Shown here piece by piece: positions 12,928 through 17,400 of a stretch of DNA of 36,835 nt (its first letter is position 1; every line of letters starts with the position of its first letter). The position numbers were made by a program, and so were the translations under genes. Source of the DNA: Caldivirga sp. (lineage in GTDB: Archaea; Thermoproteota; Thermoprotei; Thermoproteales; Thermocladiaceae). The notes under the pieces were generated by a model, which was not told the DNA's origin, ran no database searches, and saw only the letters and a list, made by a program, of their open reading frames with translations. Location of the stretch: assembly GCF_023256255.1 (NCBI RefSeq), contig NZ_JAGDXD010000032.1, positions 1-36,835 of the forward strand, read 5' to 3'.

Positions 12928-12976
12928 TTAAATCATAGCGCTAACATGAGGCATAATCCCCTTAATGGGCTTAACC

Positions 12977-15900
12977 CTAGACTGGAAGTAAGTATAGGTG
13001 AAGCTTAAGGAGCGTTAAATTAATGTCATTAAGCCTACTATTACCATTAATGTAGTGGTTAATTAATTCATTAAGCCCCCTCATCAATACACTAATGTAG
13101 GAGCCACTGTGTAGTTCACTGAAGTAGTGTAACGCAGTCTGAGTAATCATAAGATGCTTCACATCATTATTCAACACACCCTTAACTAAATGGTTAAGGG
13201 TCACTAGGTGGCTTAAAGATGGTTTATTAGCGGCAATCAACTCAATAGCAGTATTAACGCCACTTAGGCTCATTAACTGTTCAACCTCGCTTACTAACTC
13301 AGGTTTAATGATTCTCCTTAAGGAACCTAGCAATAATCTGCTTCCACCGTCTCTTAAATGGGACACTAATTCTAGGCATTCATCCTTATGTTCACTCAAT
13401 TCTCCACATTCTCTGGTGGCCTCATGTTCATTAACCATACCGTAGGTTAATTCAAGGGCTGGTTTAAGGTAACTTGAAGCATGCTTAATCATCATGCTTC
13501 TGTACTCATCCTCAAAGTTAATCATCCTGTCTAGGCTTAAGGAGAGGATTGGGGCTGTTAAGGCCATTATCTCCAGGTCCTGGATACTACTCATTAACTC
13601 CCTAAACAGTTCCTCAGTTAAGCCTCCTCCAATAGCCAGTGCAGTTAAGTATTGTGAAGCCAGTGCTGAGGTTAATTCTGGGGTTAACTTATCAATATTA
13701 TTCTTAGCCTTAACCCAGAGTTCACCTGAACCCTTAATTAACTCACCTAAGTCACCGTACCTTAGGAACCTGGACCTTGTGGATAAGGCCATTGATGCGA
13801 ACTCATACTCCTTCTCAAGCCCCAGTTCCCTATATGCTGACTCAGCCTTGTTTAAGTAGGACTCCGCTTCATTGAACTTGGCCTTAGTGAACATTACCCT
13901 ACCCCTCTCATAGTTTATGAAGGCTAAGCCCTCCTTAATGAAGTAGCTTAATGAGGCTTCAGGAGGACCCACGTACCAGCTCTCCAGGTACTGCCTAACA
14001 TCATCATTCATTGTTAATTCACTGAAGGCTGACTCAGCCCTATTGAGGAGTCCCCAAGCCTCGTCGTAGTAGCCATGAATCTCGTAGGATTCTGAAATAC
14101 TTTGGTAGGCCTCAGCCTTAGCTAAACTACAGGCGCTTGGCCTAGTTGAACATAGTTCCTCAATAAGCCTAATACCTCTATCCAGCATTTTAATCGCCTC
14201 TCCAGTGTCCTTATCCCTAGCTAGCATTGCTAAGATTTCAACAGTATTAATTGCAGCCACTGGGTCCTTAATCATTAACCCTACGTTACTCATTAAGTAA
14301 TCCTCGAAGTCAATCACGTGGCTTTCAGCAAGCCTCCATAGGTAATTTGAAGCAGCCCTTAATGCAGCCTCATTATCCTTAATTACACTTAGCAGAGGCT
14401 TGAACTCCAGGTATATTGATCTTGCATACGCAGGCAACCTATGCACAACCTCATGAAGTATAGTGAAGGCTTCGGCTGCGCATTCCTTAGCCTCACCACT
14501 TACCGTAGCCGCCCAGGTTAAGCCAAGTAGGTTAAGTAGCATTTTATCGGTGACTTCACCAGTACCCTTAACATCACTTAAATTAGCTTTAATTAAATTA
14601 CATAAGTTATAATTCCTAAGTAGGTTCCTTAACATGTTAATGAAGCCATCGTACTCAATGACCTTATTAACCGCCTCAGGTATGCGTGAACCAAGGAACA
14701 TTAGTCTCCTTAGTAGGTTACAGTTGAACTCGCTGGAGTCTTGGTGAATACCAAGCCTAATTAAGGTTAATAGCCTAGTGGTCTCGGTTAGGCAATTACT
14801 GCTCATTGCTTTAACCAATCTGCCTGCCAAGTAACCTGCAGTTAACTTAAGGGTTTCATCCAGTGACCTAATGCCTTCACCCTGTTCTCTGCATTTAAGG
14901 CAGGCTAAGGCCTCCTCAATAGCCTCCCTACTACTCTTACTTAGGCCACTTAAGTTGAGGTTCATTAATCCTCTTATAGCCTCCTCAACAACATCCTCAT
15001 GCCTAATTGATGCCCATTCAGCTAGGGATGCATCAAGCTCGGTTGAATCGCCCTCAATATAAGCTGGTATTTCCATAGCCCACCTAATCGGCATTTCACC
15101 CAAGTGAGCATGAATTATGAGTGGGTAAGTAAACCTCCTCTTAGTGTTCAAGTCCTGTTGATTCAATAAGCCTTCGTAAATGTAATACCTCATGAATGAT
15201 GCAGCATCCCCAGCGCCCTTGCTTAGTAATTCCTCAACATCATTAACGCTGCAACCGTTTTCCCTAAGCGCCTTACCAACGTAGACGGCCATGAGGGTGT
15301 AGGAGTCGTAGTCAATAATACCCTTAACATGCTCATTACCCTTATTGAAACCATTCACTAAATTAACTAACTCACCCTCGCTTAAACTACAGCCGCTGTA
15401 ATTGAGTATTATACCCTTCAATAGATCTGGGTCTCTTAGATCAATAGCTACCTCACTTAACTCACTACCTAATTCACTCAACTCATCCTTAGCAATATCC
15501 TTCAAGTCATTTGATAGGATAAGAACAATAGGTACCTTAAATCCCCTCCTCCCTGAAACCCTCCTTAGAATTGCCGTAAACTTAATGAACCTGGTTAAGT
15601 CATCAACAGTTACGACACTTTCCTCAGGTTTAGGTGATTGAATAGTGTAGAAGCCCATTTCCGATGGATCAAATAGAATAACCATCCTTGGGCCAATACC
15701 CTTACTAACGGCATCAATGCTTGGTTTAATTGGCACATAATTGAGTTGAATCACTGAATCGATTAGGTTCTTTTCAAGAGCCTTAGATAACGTATACTTA
15801 ACTAGGGTTGATTTACCAATACCCTTACTACCGCTTATTAAAACCACCTTACCCTCCCTTAAGCCATCCATCACCCTACCACTGTATTCAATGAACCTGT

Positions 15901-17203
15901 CAGTCAACACTAAATGCCTTAATTCCCCATGAACATCAATAATCATTGAATCCAAGTTAACCCCCATATCCTCTGGTTTACTGTAAACCTCACCCTCAAG
16001 TCTACTAACCCTAATTAACTCCTCAATTCCCTTTAACCTACTCTCATGCTCCTTTAAGGTTGATTCAAGCCTATTAACAGTATCCCTTAACTCCTTAATT
16101 TCCCTATTAACCTCATCTTTAATTGCACTTAACCTACCTAGAATATTATCAAGCGCCTGCCTATTGCTAAGCATGTTGAAGAAGCTGTAGACATCCATGG
16201 AATTTAGGCCCATTGCTTGGCTAATCTCAAAGGACAATATGCGCCTAAGGTCTTCGTTAAGCTTACCCCAATCATCAGCAACCTGGATGAGTTCATCAAT
16301 GTATGACCTTGATTCTGAATTAGCAATAATGGTGCTCACTATGGCGCTAGCTACGCCGCCAACCAGTGAACCCACACTGGGTATTATAATGTTCATTACG
16401 CCACTAATTCTGGATGCTAAGGCTGCTAATTTCTCGGCTAATTCTTCAAACTCCCTTGAACTTACTACCCAGGCGCCGCTGCTTATTAAGCCACCTAATG
16501 CACCAGCCCCAATACCCTCTACGATACTCCTCCTTAAGCCGAGTCTACTGGCTAATCTACCGTATGCTTCCAACTGCCTAATGAGTTCACTAGTATTAGA
16601 GATTCCTAGGATAAGTAAACTAGGTACGTGGTACTTGATTCCAAGCCAATTGAATCGAGTTAACTTAAGTAGGTCCTCAGGTGCACTACTTGAACTTACT
16701 CCTACTTTTCTTTCAATCTCTTTAACGAATTCAAGGGCCTCTTCATCACCCATCCAGTAATACGTAGTCTCCGCATCTTTACCATGCTTCCTATACGTCT
16801 CCACTAAGTGCCTAATTATTGGTTCAGGTACGTAACCAAGCCTATTAAATACATGCTCAACGATTACCCCAGCCTTATCCTCAATCCCAGCCTCCTTTAA
16901 GGCTCTGTGTGCATCACTAATGCTTAATGCATTGATACCAGTGCTTAATCTACTCAAGAATGACCTAAATAACCTGGTGAGATCCCTCGGCTGCTTCTCA
17001 CGACTACTGACTACATCATCAATAGCTTGGGCACTTAACCCAGCAAGCTTAATTAGCGTTGACTTACCTGAACGAGGTGGGCCAATAACAATAATCCTTA
17101 CGCCTCTTTTACTTAATTCCCTTAATTCACTAATCTTCCTAATTACGTATCCTGTACACGCAATTGACTGATCACTACAAGTAACCTCTTCACTACTGGC
17201 CAA
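12977..17203 (-). CDS. Giant STAND-like protein with two P-loop domains, coiled coil and helical-repeat tail
   Basis: 1408 residues of unknown function. Order: P-loop 1, GPPRSGKST (41-49); an alpha-helical part; two Gly-rich hydrophobic segments (about 228-247 and 268-294) that look membrane-inserting; a coiled coil (about 355-400); P-loop 2, GSKGIGKST (458-466), with Walker B-like RMVILFDPSE (D512) and a sensor-like VLILSND (N565); then about 800 residues of helices, TPR-like around 1030-1190 (repeated A/Y-rich pairs such as YDEAWGLLNRAESAF and FNEAESYLNKAESAY). Coupling a P-loop switch to superhelical repeats is the plan of STAND signalling ATPases, including defence (Avs-like) and apoptosis-type proteins; a second N-terminal P-loop with membrane-like hairpins is unusual. 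The start is a TTG with AAACTTAAAACT (17235-17246) further upstream; an alternative start is possible. It stands alone, so its role is unknown. Confidence 0.8.
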   Translation of the reverse strand: MASSEEVTCSDQSIACTGYVIRKISELRELSKRGVRIIVIGPPRSGKSTLIKLAGLSAQAIDDVVSSREKQPRDLTRLFRSFLSRLSTGINALSISDAHRALKEAGIEDKAGVIVEHVFNRLGYVPEPIIRHLVETYRKHGKDAETTYYWMGDEEALEFVKEIERKVGVSSSSAPEDLLKLTRFNWLGIKYHVPSLLILGISNTSELIRQLEAYGRLASRLGLRRSIVEGIGAGALGGLISSGAWVVSSREFEELAEKLAALASRISGVMNIIIPSVGSLVGGVASAIVSTIIANSESRSYIDELIQVADDWGKLNEDLRRILSFEISQAMGLNSMDVYSFFNMLSNRQALDNILGRLSAIKDEVNREIKELRDTVNRLESTLKEHESRLKGIEELIRVSRLEGEVYSKPEDMGVNLDSMIIDVHGELRHLVLTDRFIEYSGRVMDGLREGKVVLISGSKGIGKSTLVKYTLSKALEKNLIDSVIQLNYVPIKPSIDAVSKGIGPRMVILFDPSEMGFYTIQSPKPEESVVTVDDLTRFIKFTAILRRVSGRRGFKVPIVLILSNDLKDIAKDELSELGSELSEVAIDLRDPDLLKGIILNYSGCSLSEGELVNLVNGFNKGNEHVKGIIDYDSYTLMAVYVGKALRENGCSVNDVEELLSKGAGDAASFMRYYIYEGLLNQQDLNTKRRFTYPLIIHAHLGEMPIRWAMEIPAYIEGDSTELDASLAEWASIRHEDVVEEAIRGLMNLNLSGLSKSSREAIEEALACLKCREQGEGIRSLDETLKLTAGYLAGRLVKAMSSNCLTETTRLLTLIRLGIHQDSSEFNCNLLRRLMFLGSRIPEAVNKVIEYDGFINMLRNLLRNYNLCNLIKANLSDVKGTGEVTDKMLLNLLGLTWAATVSGEAKECAAEAFTILHEVVHRLPAYARSIYLEFKPLLSVIKDNEAALRAASNYLWRLAESHVIDFEDYLMSNVGLMIKDPVAAINTVEILAMLARDKDTGEAIKMLDRGIRLIEELCSTRPSACSLAKAEAYQSISESYEIHGYYDEAWGLLNRAESAFSELTMNDDVRQYLESWYVGPPEASLSYFIKEGLAFINYERGRVMFTKAKFNEAESYLNKAESAYRELGLEKEYEFASMALSTRSRFLRYGDLGELIKGSGELWVKAKNNIDKLTPELTSALASQYLTALAIGGGLTEELFRELMSSIQDLEIMALTAPILSLSLDRMINFEDEYRSMMIKHASSYLKPALELTYGMVNEHEATRECGELSEHKDECLELVSHLRDGGSRLLLGSLRRIIKPELVSEVEQLMSLSGVNTAIELIAANKPSLSHLVTLNHLVKGVLNNDVKHLMITQTALHYFSELHSGSYISVLMRGLNELINHYINGNSRLNDINLTLLKLHLYLLPV

Positions 17204-17355
17204 TTAAATCATCTGAAACTACTGTATTGTAGACAAGTTTTAAGTTTAACTACGCATTAATACATAGAATAAATTATTAAACACAATACTACAGTGATTC
17301 CATTATTCTATTCACTTAAAGCATCTTAATAAATGTGCTAACGAGTTTGCTTGCA

Positions 17356-17373
17356 TCATTAATGCATTAATGA
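17356..17373. repeat. Perfect 18-bp palindrome
   Basis: TCATTAATGCATTAATGA equals its own reverse complement. It lies 27 bp beyond the mqnC stop and about 150 bp upstream of the 1408-residue protein's start, on the same strand order. It could be an operator for a dimeric repressor. A long AT-rich palindrome may also arise by chance in such DNA. Confidence 0.5.
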
Positions 17374-17400
17374 GGTATGCTTACTAATGAGCGATAATGC

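What the first reader, a model, noticed from the sequence alone, without database searches (positions are those of the whole stretch)
12977..17203. 1408-residue dual P-loop STAND-like protein: candidate undescribed signalling or defence system
The sequence shows two separate P-loops (GPPRSGKST at 41-49 and GSKGIGKST at 458-466), a Walker B-like FDPSE and sensor-like Asn with the second, a coiled coil between, and about 800 residues of helical/TPR-like repeats. STAND ATPases are known to couple one NTPase switch to a repeat sensor, often in antiviral or cell-death signalling. A second N-terminal P-loop joined to hydrophobic hairpins is not the usual plan. The defence role is inference: no nuclease or protease effector is fused or adjacent.
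Basis: partly seen in the sequence, partly recalled or inferred. Interest (0 to 1): 0.7.

Follow-up and report, generated by a model that had tools for sequence, protein, structure and literature searches.

The report
Archaeal NLR-like STAND sensor, swappable front
This single archaeal gene encodes a large switch protein built like the immune sensors of bacteria, plants and animals; its relatives are patchy, often broken, sit beside antiviral genes and swap their front ends, so it is probably an undescribed antiviral sensor of hot-spring archaea, although no experiment has tested that.

Summary
The ORF is real: 1408 codons, TTG start, MINUS strand, in a Caldivirga-like archaeon. It has two P-loops, a conserved hydrophobic segment, a coiled coil, an nSTAND3-type NTPase and a ~630-residue C-terminal helical superhelix (AlphaFold pLDDT 84; best PDB look-alikes are TPR domains). 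It is a divergent member (at most 25% identity) of a family of ~1300-1700 aa proteins in Thermoproteales, Thermofilum, Sulfolobales and a few other archaea. The family is patchy, multi-copy and often pseudogenised. The complete genome of a congener lacks the gene: the same flanking genes lie about 200 bp apart. Neighbours of relatives hit 112 PADLOC defence models against 16 for an equal set of control genes (BrxL, type IIG restriction, DUF1156 methylase/SNF2 helicase). The N-terminal module varies: P-loop type (window), a 'GSSR' type, truncated, and in one Vulcanisaeta protein a SIR2 domain, the only SIR2_2 match in 45 genomes of the order. So P-loop 1 is not a family hallmark; it occupies the effector position. 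Best reading: an NLR/Avs-like intracellular sensor, nearest to Avs5 (SIR2-nSTAND3-TPR) but with another effector module. Function is inferred; the window copy is solitary among housekeeping genes. New variant of a known kind.

The parts
12977..17203 (-). Whole gene, 1408 codons plus stop, TTG start; STAND/NLR-like protein
   Evidence: family
16529..17203 (-). N-terminal module (aa 1-225), type A: NTPase-like with P-loop 1; sits in the effector position
   Evidence: (AAA_22, 27.4 bits against cut-off 27); poor AlphaFold confidence
17057..17083 (-). P-loop 1, GPPRSGKST (aa 41-49)
   Evidence: sequence; G41 P42 P43 S45 G46 K47 invariant in 12 type-A proteins
16460..16516 (-). Weak hydrophobic segment 1 (aa 230-248)
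   Evidence: Kyte-Doolittle 1.30 over 19 residues
16334..16390 (-). Hydrophobic segment 2 (aa 272-290); counterpart in nearly all full-length family members
   Evidence: Kyte-Doolittle 1.91
16010..16162 (-). Coiled-coil helix (aa 348-398)
   Evidence: AlphaFold helix
15344..15991 (-). nSTAND3-like STAND NTPase core (aa 405-620)
   Evidence: Pfam nSTAND3 29.5 bits against cut-off 27.2, aligned over aa 443-486 only; AlphaFold pLDDT mostly 75-93, lower in loops near 491-531
15806..15832 (-). P-loop 2, GSKGIGKST (aa 458-466)
   Evidence: G458 G461 G463 K464 S465 invariant in 18 homologues
15659..15673 (-). Walker-B position, FDPSE (aa 511-515)
   Evidence: D512 P513 invariant, E515 not
14999..15301 (-). 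Helical region after the NTPase (aa 635-735): lid / winged-helix position, with the family's GYTLIARYVG-like motif
12980..14998 (-). C-terminal TPR-like superhelix (aa 736-1408; confident from about aa 781), presumed sensor
   Evidence: AlphaFold pLDDT 83.7; Foldseek LGN TPR TMt 0.69, STAND-TPR 6mfv
12933..17379 (.). Stretch absent from congener G001, where about 200 bp joins the same flanking genes (accessory insertion)

Best explanation
It is an NLR/Avs-like intracellular defence sensor. Shown: tripartite layout, membership of a patchy and often broken family beside defence genes, exchangeable N-terminus, empty site in a congener. Inferred: the C-terminal superhelix binds an invader's (virus or plasmid) protein; this releases the nSTAND3-type NTPase, which exchanges nucleotide and oligomerises through NTPase and coiled coil; the oligomer switches on the N-terminal part. 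For the effector, my commitment (about 0.35 on its own) is that clustering of the conserved hydrophobic segments perturbs the membrane, with the type-A P-loop domain gating it or assisting oligomerisation, so that the infected cell stops growing or dies.
For: nSTAND3 match to P-loop 2 and a TPR superhelix, the same two parts as Avs5 (PMC12931631). One relative carries SIR2_2 at its N-terminus (E 1.2e-12), the only SIR2_2 match in 45 genomes of the order. N-terminal types do not follow the tree: starred branches force at least 4 changes of type A (one C label there is an assembly gap). Neighbours of relatives match 112 PADLOC families against 16 for controls at E<=1e-15; BrxL and a type IIG enzyme adjoin L030, an Eco57I-type methylase lies near L031, a DUF1156 methylase near L033, an SNF2 helicase near L035. 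Three of five genomes of the genus have the family, two lack it; broken copies in G021, G032, G020, G023. Empty site in G001. Conserved hydrophobic segment in all N-terminal types.
Against: The window copy is alone among metabolic and replication genes, with no defence gene beside it. It is the most divergent member (25% identity at best, branch 1.9). No PADLOC Avs model matches it. The nSTAND3 match is only 2 bits over its cut-off and covers 44 residues. The N-terminal module is unsolved: AlphaFold below 50, no PDB relative. The SIR2 swap rests on one protein of an incomplete MAG. Some neighbours (HerA/VirB4-like) look like DNA-transfer genes rather than defence. No function was tested.
Confidence: 0.68

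Rival explanations
1. Same sensor, but the N-terminal P-loop domain is itself the toxic enzyme (an NTP-consuming or nucleotide-modifying effector), and the hydrophobic segment is only a membrane anchor or packing helix.
For: P-loop 1 is invariant in 12 type-A proteins and lies where the SIR2 relative carries its enzyme. SIR2 in Avs5 depletes NAD (PMC12931631).
Against: About half of the relatives have a 'GSSR' sequence there or no such domain yet keep the hydrophobic segment. No enzyme family matched beyond AAA_22 at its cut-off. The SIR2 protein also keeps a P-loop after its SIR2 domain.
Confidence: 0.22
2. A gene of mobile or DNA-transfer elements (exclusion, stability or competition function) rather than a host antiviral gene.
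For: In Vulcanisaeta (L023, L028, L041, L044) it lies in a same-strand block with a HerA/VirB4-like ATPase and a multi-TM protein, in several degraded copies. Such genes form the Ted DNA-exchange system (PMC9905601). The gene is an insertion in the window.
Against: G007 has the ATPase and TM genes without the STAND gene. Most other relatives lie beside restriction, methylase or BREX genes. No integrase or transfer gene flanks the window copy. Defence genes are commonly carried by mobile elements, so the two readings overlap.
Confidence: 0.12
3. A non-immune STAND regulator (MalT-like signalling or transcription control).
For: STAND-TPR proteins include regulators (general knowledge of the STAND class). 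Truncated-type relatives lie near a Csa3-like CARF-HTH regulator.
Against: No DNA-binding domain was found; patchy, multi-copy and pseudogenised; N-terminal module includes SIR2.
Confidence: 0.1
4. A housekeeping AAA+ machine (ClpB/ClpC-like disaggregase) with two ATPase domains.
For: Foldseek lists ClpB/ClpC first.
Against: TM-scores about 0.2 on a model whose N-terminal part is below 50 pLDDT; absent from the complete G001 genome and the 98%-complete G002; P-loop 1 lost in many members.
Confidence: 0.02

Closest known systems
Avs5 / AVAST type 5 (SIR2 - nSTAND3 - TPR/Sel1)
   Same: nSTAND3-type NTPase and C-terminal TPR superhelix; one family member (Vulcanisaeta, L058) also carries SIR2_2 at the N-terminus
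   Different: Window protein has no SIR2 but an N-terminal P-loop domain, hydrophobic segment and coiled coil; no PADLOC Avs model matches
STAND NTPases in general, incl. Apaf-1, bacterial NLR-like proteins and the archaeal STAND-TPR protein 6mfv
   Same: effector - NTPase switch - repeat sensor; Apaf-1 (1z6t) and Avs5 (9jap) appear in the Foldseek list
   Different: Walker B reads hhhDPS with no conserved Glu; a second P-loop domain at the N-terminus; conserved hydrophobic segment
Plant CC-NLRs and other NLRs with membrane-acting N-termini (analogy only)
   Same: coiled coil and hydrophobic N-terminal part ahead of the switch
   Different: no sequence relation shown; analogy from memory
Ted/Ced DNA-transfer systems (PMC9905601)
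   Same: Vulcanisaeta relatives lie within a HerA/VirB4-like ATPase plus multi-TM block
   Different: the STAND protein is not a described Ted component and G007 has the block without it

Membership tests
STAND NTPase class | P-loop NTPase of STAND type between a variable N-terminus and C-terminal repeats | tested here: met
   nSTAND3 29.5 bits (cut-off 27.2); TPR-like superhelix
STAND NTPase class | Walker B with acidic pair / catalytic Glu and conserved sensor | tested here: inconclusive
   Asp512 invariant, but followed by Pro-Ser; Glu and sensor Asn not conserved
STAND NTPase class | Nucleotide-dependent oligomerisation | not testable with these tools
   needs purified protein
Avs5 | nSTAND3 domain (PF20720) | tested here: met
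   over aa 443-486 only
Avs5 | N-terminal SIR2 (PF13289) | tested here: not met
   no SIR2 in window protein and none in its genome; present in one relative
Avs5 | C-terminal TPR/Sel1 repeats | tested here: met
Avs5 | match to a curated Avs model | tested here: not met
   no Avs hit in PADLOC at E<=0.1 for the window protein, nor at E<=0.01 for five relatives
Defence-associated gene family | neighbours enriched for defence genes over controls | tested here: met
   112 against 16 PADLOC families in 111 and 112 genes; not at the window locus itself
Housekeeping AAA+ protein | present in all relatives at a fixed locus | tested here: not met
   empty site in G001; patchy in genus and order
KAP NTPases (membrane P-loop NTPases) | KAP NTPase Pfam match | tested here: not met
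   not among Pfam hits at E<=0.1

The most novel reading that the evidence does not exclude
A previously undescribed archaeal NLR-like immune family, in which the same nSTAND3-TPR chassis is combined with at least three different N-terminal modules, including an uncharacterised NTPase effector coupled to a membrane-acting segment: in effect a two-NTPase immune receptor.
Probability: 0.4. Interest if true: 0.78.

Novelty: new variant of a known kind. Interest (0 to 1): 0.58.

Why it matters
Defence systems beyond CRISPR and restriction are poorly known in archaea: nearly a third of archaeal genomes show none (PMC12988326 abstract). A fast-turnover NLR-like family in hyperthermophiles with exchangeable effectors, one of them SIR2, would extend the receptor logic of plant, animal and bacterial immunity to Thermoproteales. 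It would also offer heat-stable proteins for structural work and an uncharacterised effector module.

Tried and rejected
Whole-protein PDB search found nothing credible (E above 0.5); N-terminal profile search gave only coiled-coil and generic P-loop noise. The search for related loci with the single sequence found nothing; with the family alignment it gave 12 loci. No relative in IMG/VR viral contigs. Foldseek of the N-terminal/STAND model gives mixed AAA+ hits; not used beyond 'AAA+/STAND-like'. An ORC/Cdc6-like sensor ('ILGISN', aa ~200) was considered and dropped because it does not align with the other type-A proteins. Homology of type-A and type-B N-termini: hhalign probability 2.5%, so not claimed. 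HerA/'mad8' neighbours were first read as defence (MADS), then discounted as likely DNA-transfer or housekeeping genes (NurA beside L021). Labelling L027 and L054 as truncated was corrected: L027 is a type-A gene with an assembly gap, L054 has its N-terminus in a separate frame. Three neighbours match a pAgo model but were not identified individually.

Full report
OBSERVATION. The ORF at 12977-17203 is on the minus strand: 1408 codons with a TTG start. Both P-loops are exactly as reported. Pfam places nSTAND3 on P-loop 2 (29.5 bits, cut-off 27.2, aa 443-486) and AAA_22 on P-loop 1 (27.4 against 27, aa 37-106); both are borderline and rest on the P-loop surroundings. PADLOC gives only generic NTPase hits and no Avs model. 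AlphaFold models the STAND core (about 405-620, pLDDT mostly 75-93, loops lower) and the C-terminal superhelix (736-1408, mean 83.7) well, but not residues 1-250. Foldseek places the C-terminus among TPR superhelices (LGN 4wne, TM 0.69 on the target) and lists the STAND-TPR protein 6mfv. The STAND-containing model gives mixed AAA+ hits, including EfAvs5 (9jap) and Apaf-1 (1z6t).

FAMILY. A single-sequence search hit 18 of 61 relatives. A profile of 18 members (A1) finds long, near-complete or clearly homologous copies (E<=1e-180) in 13 of 45 genomes of the order; weaker profile hits are mostly unrelated P-loops. In the genus, G000, G003 and G004 have members, while G001 (complete) and G002 have none. 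A scan of named genomes gives Caldivirga, Vulcanisaeta, Thermoproteus, Thermofilum, a Sulfolobales archaeon, Methanodesulfokora and a Calditenuaceae archaeon; a phylum search adds further genomes of family f31. Copies are often several per genome and often broken: G021 copies are split into 2-4 frames, and G032, G020 and G023 copies carry internal stops. Conserved core: GxxGxGKS, hhhYDPS with Asp-Pro invariant, LPxDLY, FL..I...YSGC and GYTLIARYVG.

N-TERMINAL MODULES. Type A (window, G025, G038, G034, G006, G013, G324 and others) keeps GPPRSGK[ST]; G41 P42 P43 S45 G46 K47 are invariant in 12 proteins. Type B (Thermofilum, Thermoproteus, Methanodesulfokora) has GSSR or a similar sequence at that position; profile comparison does not support A-B homology (2.5%). 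Type C (L031, L038) lacks the module and has a Csa3-like CARF-HTH gene nearby upstream (TIGR01884 E 1.1e-8, below its cut-off). One Vulcanisaeta protein (L058, 1703 aa) begins with SIR2_2 (E 1.2e-12), then a further P-loop (GHSSTGKT), a hydrophobic segment, coiled coil, STAND and repeats. It is the only SIR2_2 match in 45 genomes of the order. On a tree of the shared part, starred branches force at least four changes of type A and two of type B. I had labelled L027 and L054 as type C in that tree; one search shows that one is an assembly gap and the other has its N-terminus in a separate frame, so the exact counts are approximate, but A and B remain intermixed. In nearly every full-length member a hydrophobic stretch (Kyte-Doolittle up to 2.4) lies about 160-250 residues before the STAND P-loop; in the window it is aa 272-290.

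LOCUS. In G001 the same neighbours (121-aa ORF and MqnC-like gene; flanks 86% identical) are separated by about 200 bp and no gene; in the window by about 4.5 kb carrying only this gene. In G003 and G004 the two flanks lie on different contigs with other neighbours; in G002 both contigs end at this point, so its state is unknown. The window gene is thus an accessory insertion among housekeeping genes (futalosine/menaquinone, MFS, aminotransferase, PCNA, primase).

NEIGHBOURS OF RELATIVES. Beside L030: BrxL and a type IIG restriction-methylase. Near L031: an Eco57I-type methylase. Near L025: a methylase. Near L033: a DUF1156 methylase. Near L035: an SNF2 helicase with NERD. Near L036: a NOV_C/sacsin-type ATPase. 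For 111 genes within four ORFs of 16 relatives, 112 PADLOC families match at E<=1e-15; for 112 control genes from 14 arbitrary loci, mostly of the same genomes, 16 match, most of them from one methylase or from housekeeping look-alikes. The unit is families matched, not genes, and one methylase or helicase can match many models, so the ratio overstates the gene-level enrichment; in the neighbour set, however, several models match 2-4 different genes, in the controls never more than one. HerA/VirB4-like neighbours are discounted: in Vulcanisaeta they sit with a multi-TM protein in a Ted-like DNA-transfer block, and G007 has that block without the STAND gene.

MECHANISM. Shown: architecture, conserved P-loops, family behaviour, module variation. 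Inferred: sensing by the superhelix, nucleotide-driven oligomerisation, effector action. Because the hydrophobic segment persists through all N-terminal types while P-loop 1 does not, membrane perturbation is my first choice for the common output, with the P-loop domain as a lineage-specific addition or gate (about 0.35). An enzymatic P-loop effector is the main rival (0.22).

COMPARISON. Avs5 is SIR2 - nSTAND3 - TPR/Sel1, senses a phage protein and depletes NAD (PMC12931631). The window protein meets the nSTAND3 and TPR tests and fails the SIR2 and Avs-model tests; it is therefore Avs5-like in plan but not filed as Avs5. No description of the family was found in the paper searches made, with the limit that most subscription papers are not held. 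The 2026 archaeal defence survey does not mention STAND, NLR, SIR2 or Avs as whole words.

VERDICT. A real, divergent member of an NLR-like archaeal family; defence role probable, not proven; new variant of a known kind.

Noticed in passing
L023:2674-15714 (also L028, L041, L044): Vulcanisaeta block of ~122 aa, ~168 aa, HerA/VirB4-like ~697 aa, multi-TM 427 aa, STAND gene and a 1431-aa multi-TM protein, several copies degraded in G021: looks like a Ted/T4SS-like DNA-transfer element.
   Followed up: partly
L031:10037-10864, L038:8403-8903: Csa3-like CARF-HTH regulator upstream of the type-C STAND genes (directly adjacent in L038), suggesting possible second-messenger control.
   Followed up: partly
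L034:1642-11834; L057:1-14089: Type-A and type-B family members side by side in one locus in two unrelated genomes.
   Followed up: no
L038:17224-18819, L043:14350-16868: A Ser/Thr-kinase-like protein (L038) whose relative in L043 lies next to a VWA protein, near family members.
   Followed up: no
L036:3977-7174: 1065-aa sacsin/HATPase plus NOV_C protein between two family fragments/members.
   Followed up: no
window:553-2013 and window:24570-25523: ORFs of 486 and 317 aa with no Pfam match at E<=0.001.
   Followed up: no
window:35266-36530: About 1.3 kb without an ORF of 80 aa or more and no Rfam match; unexplained gap.
   Followed up: no
window:12928-17400 against G001, G003, G004: The site is empty in G001 and a synteny break in two other congeners, so it may be an insertion or rearrangement hot spot.
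   Followed up: partly
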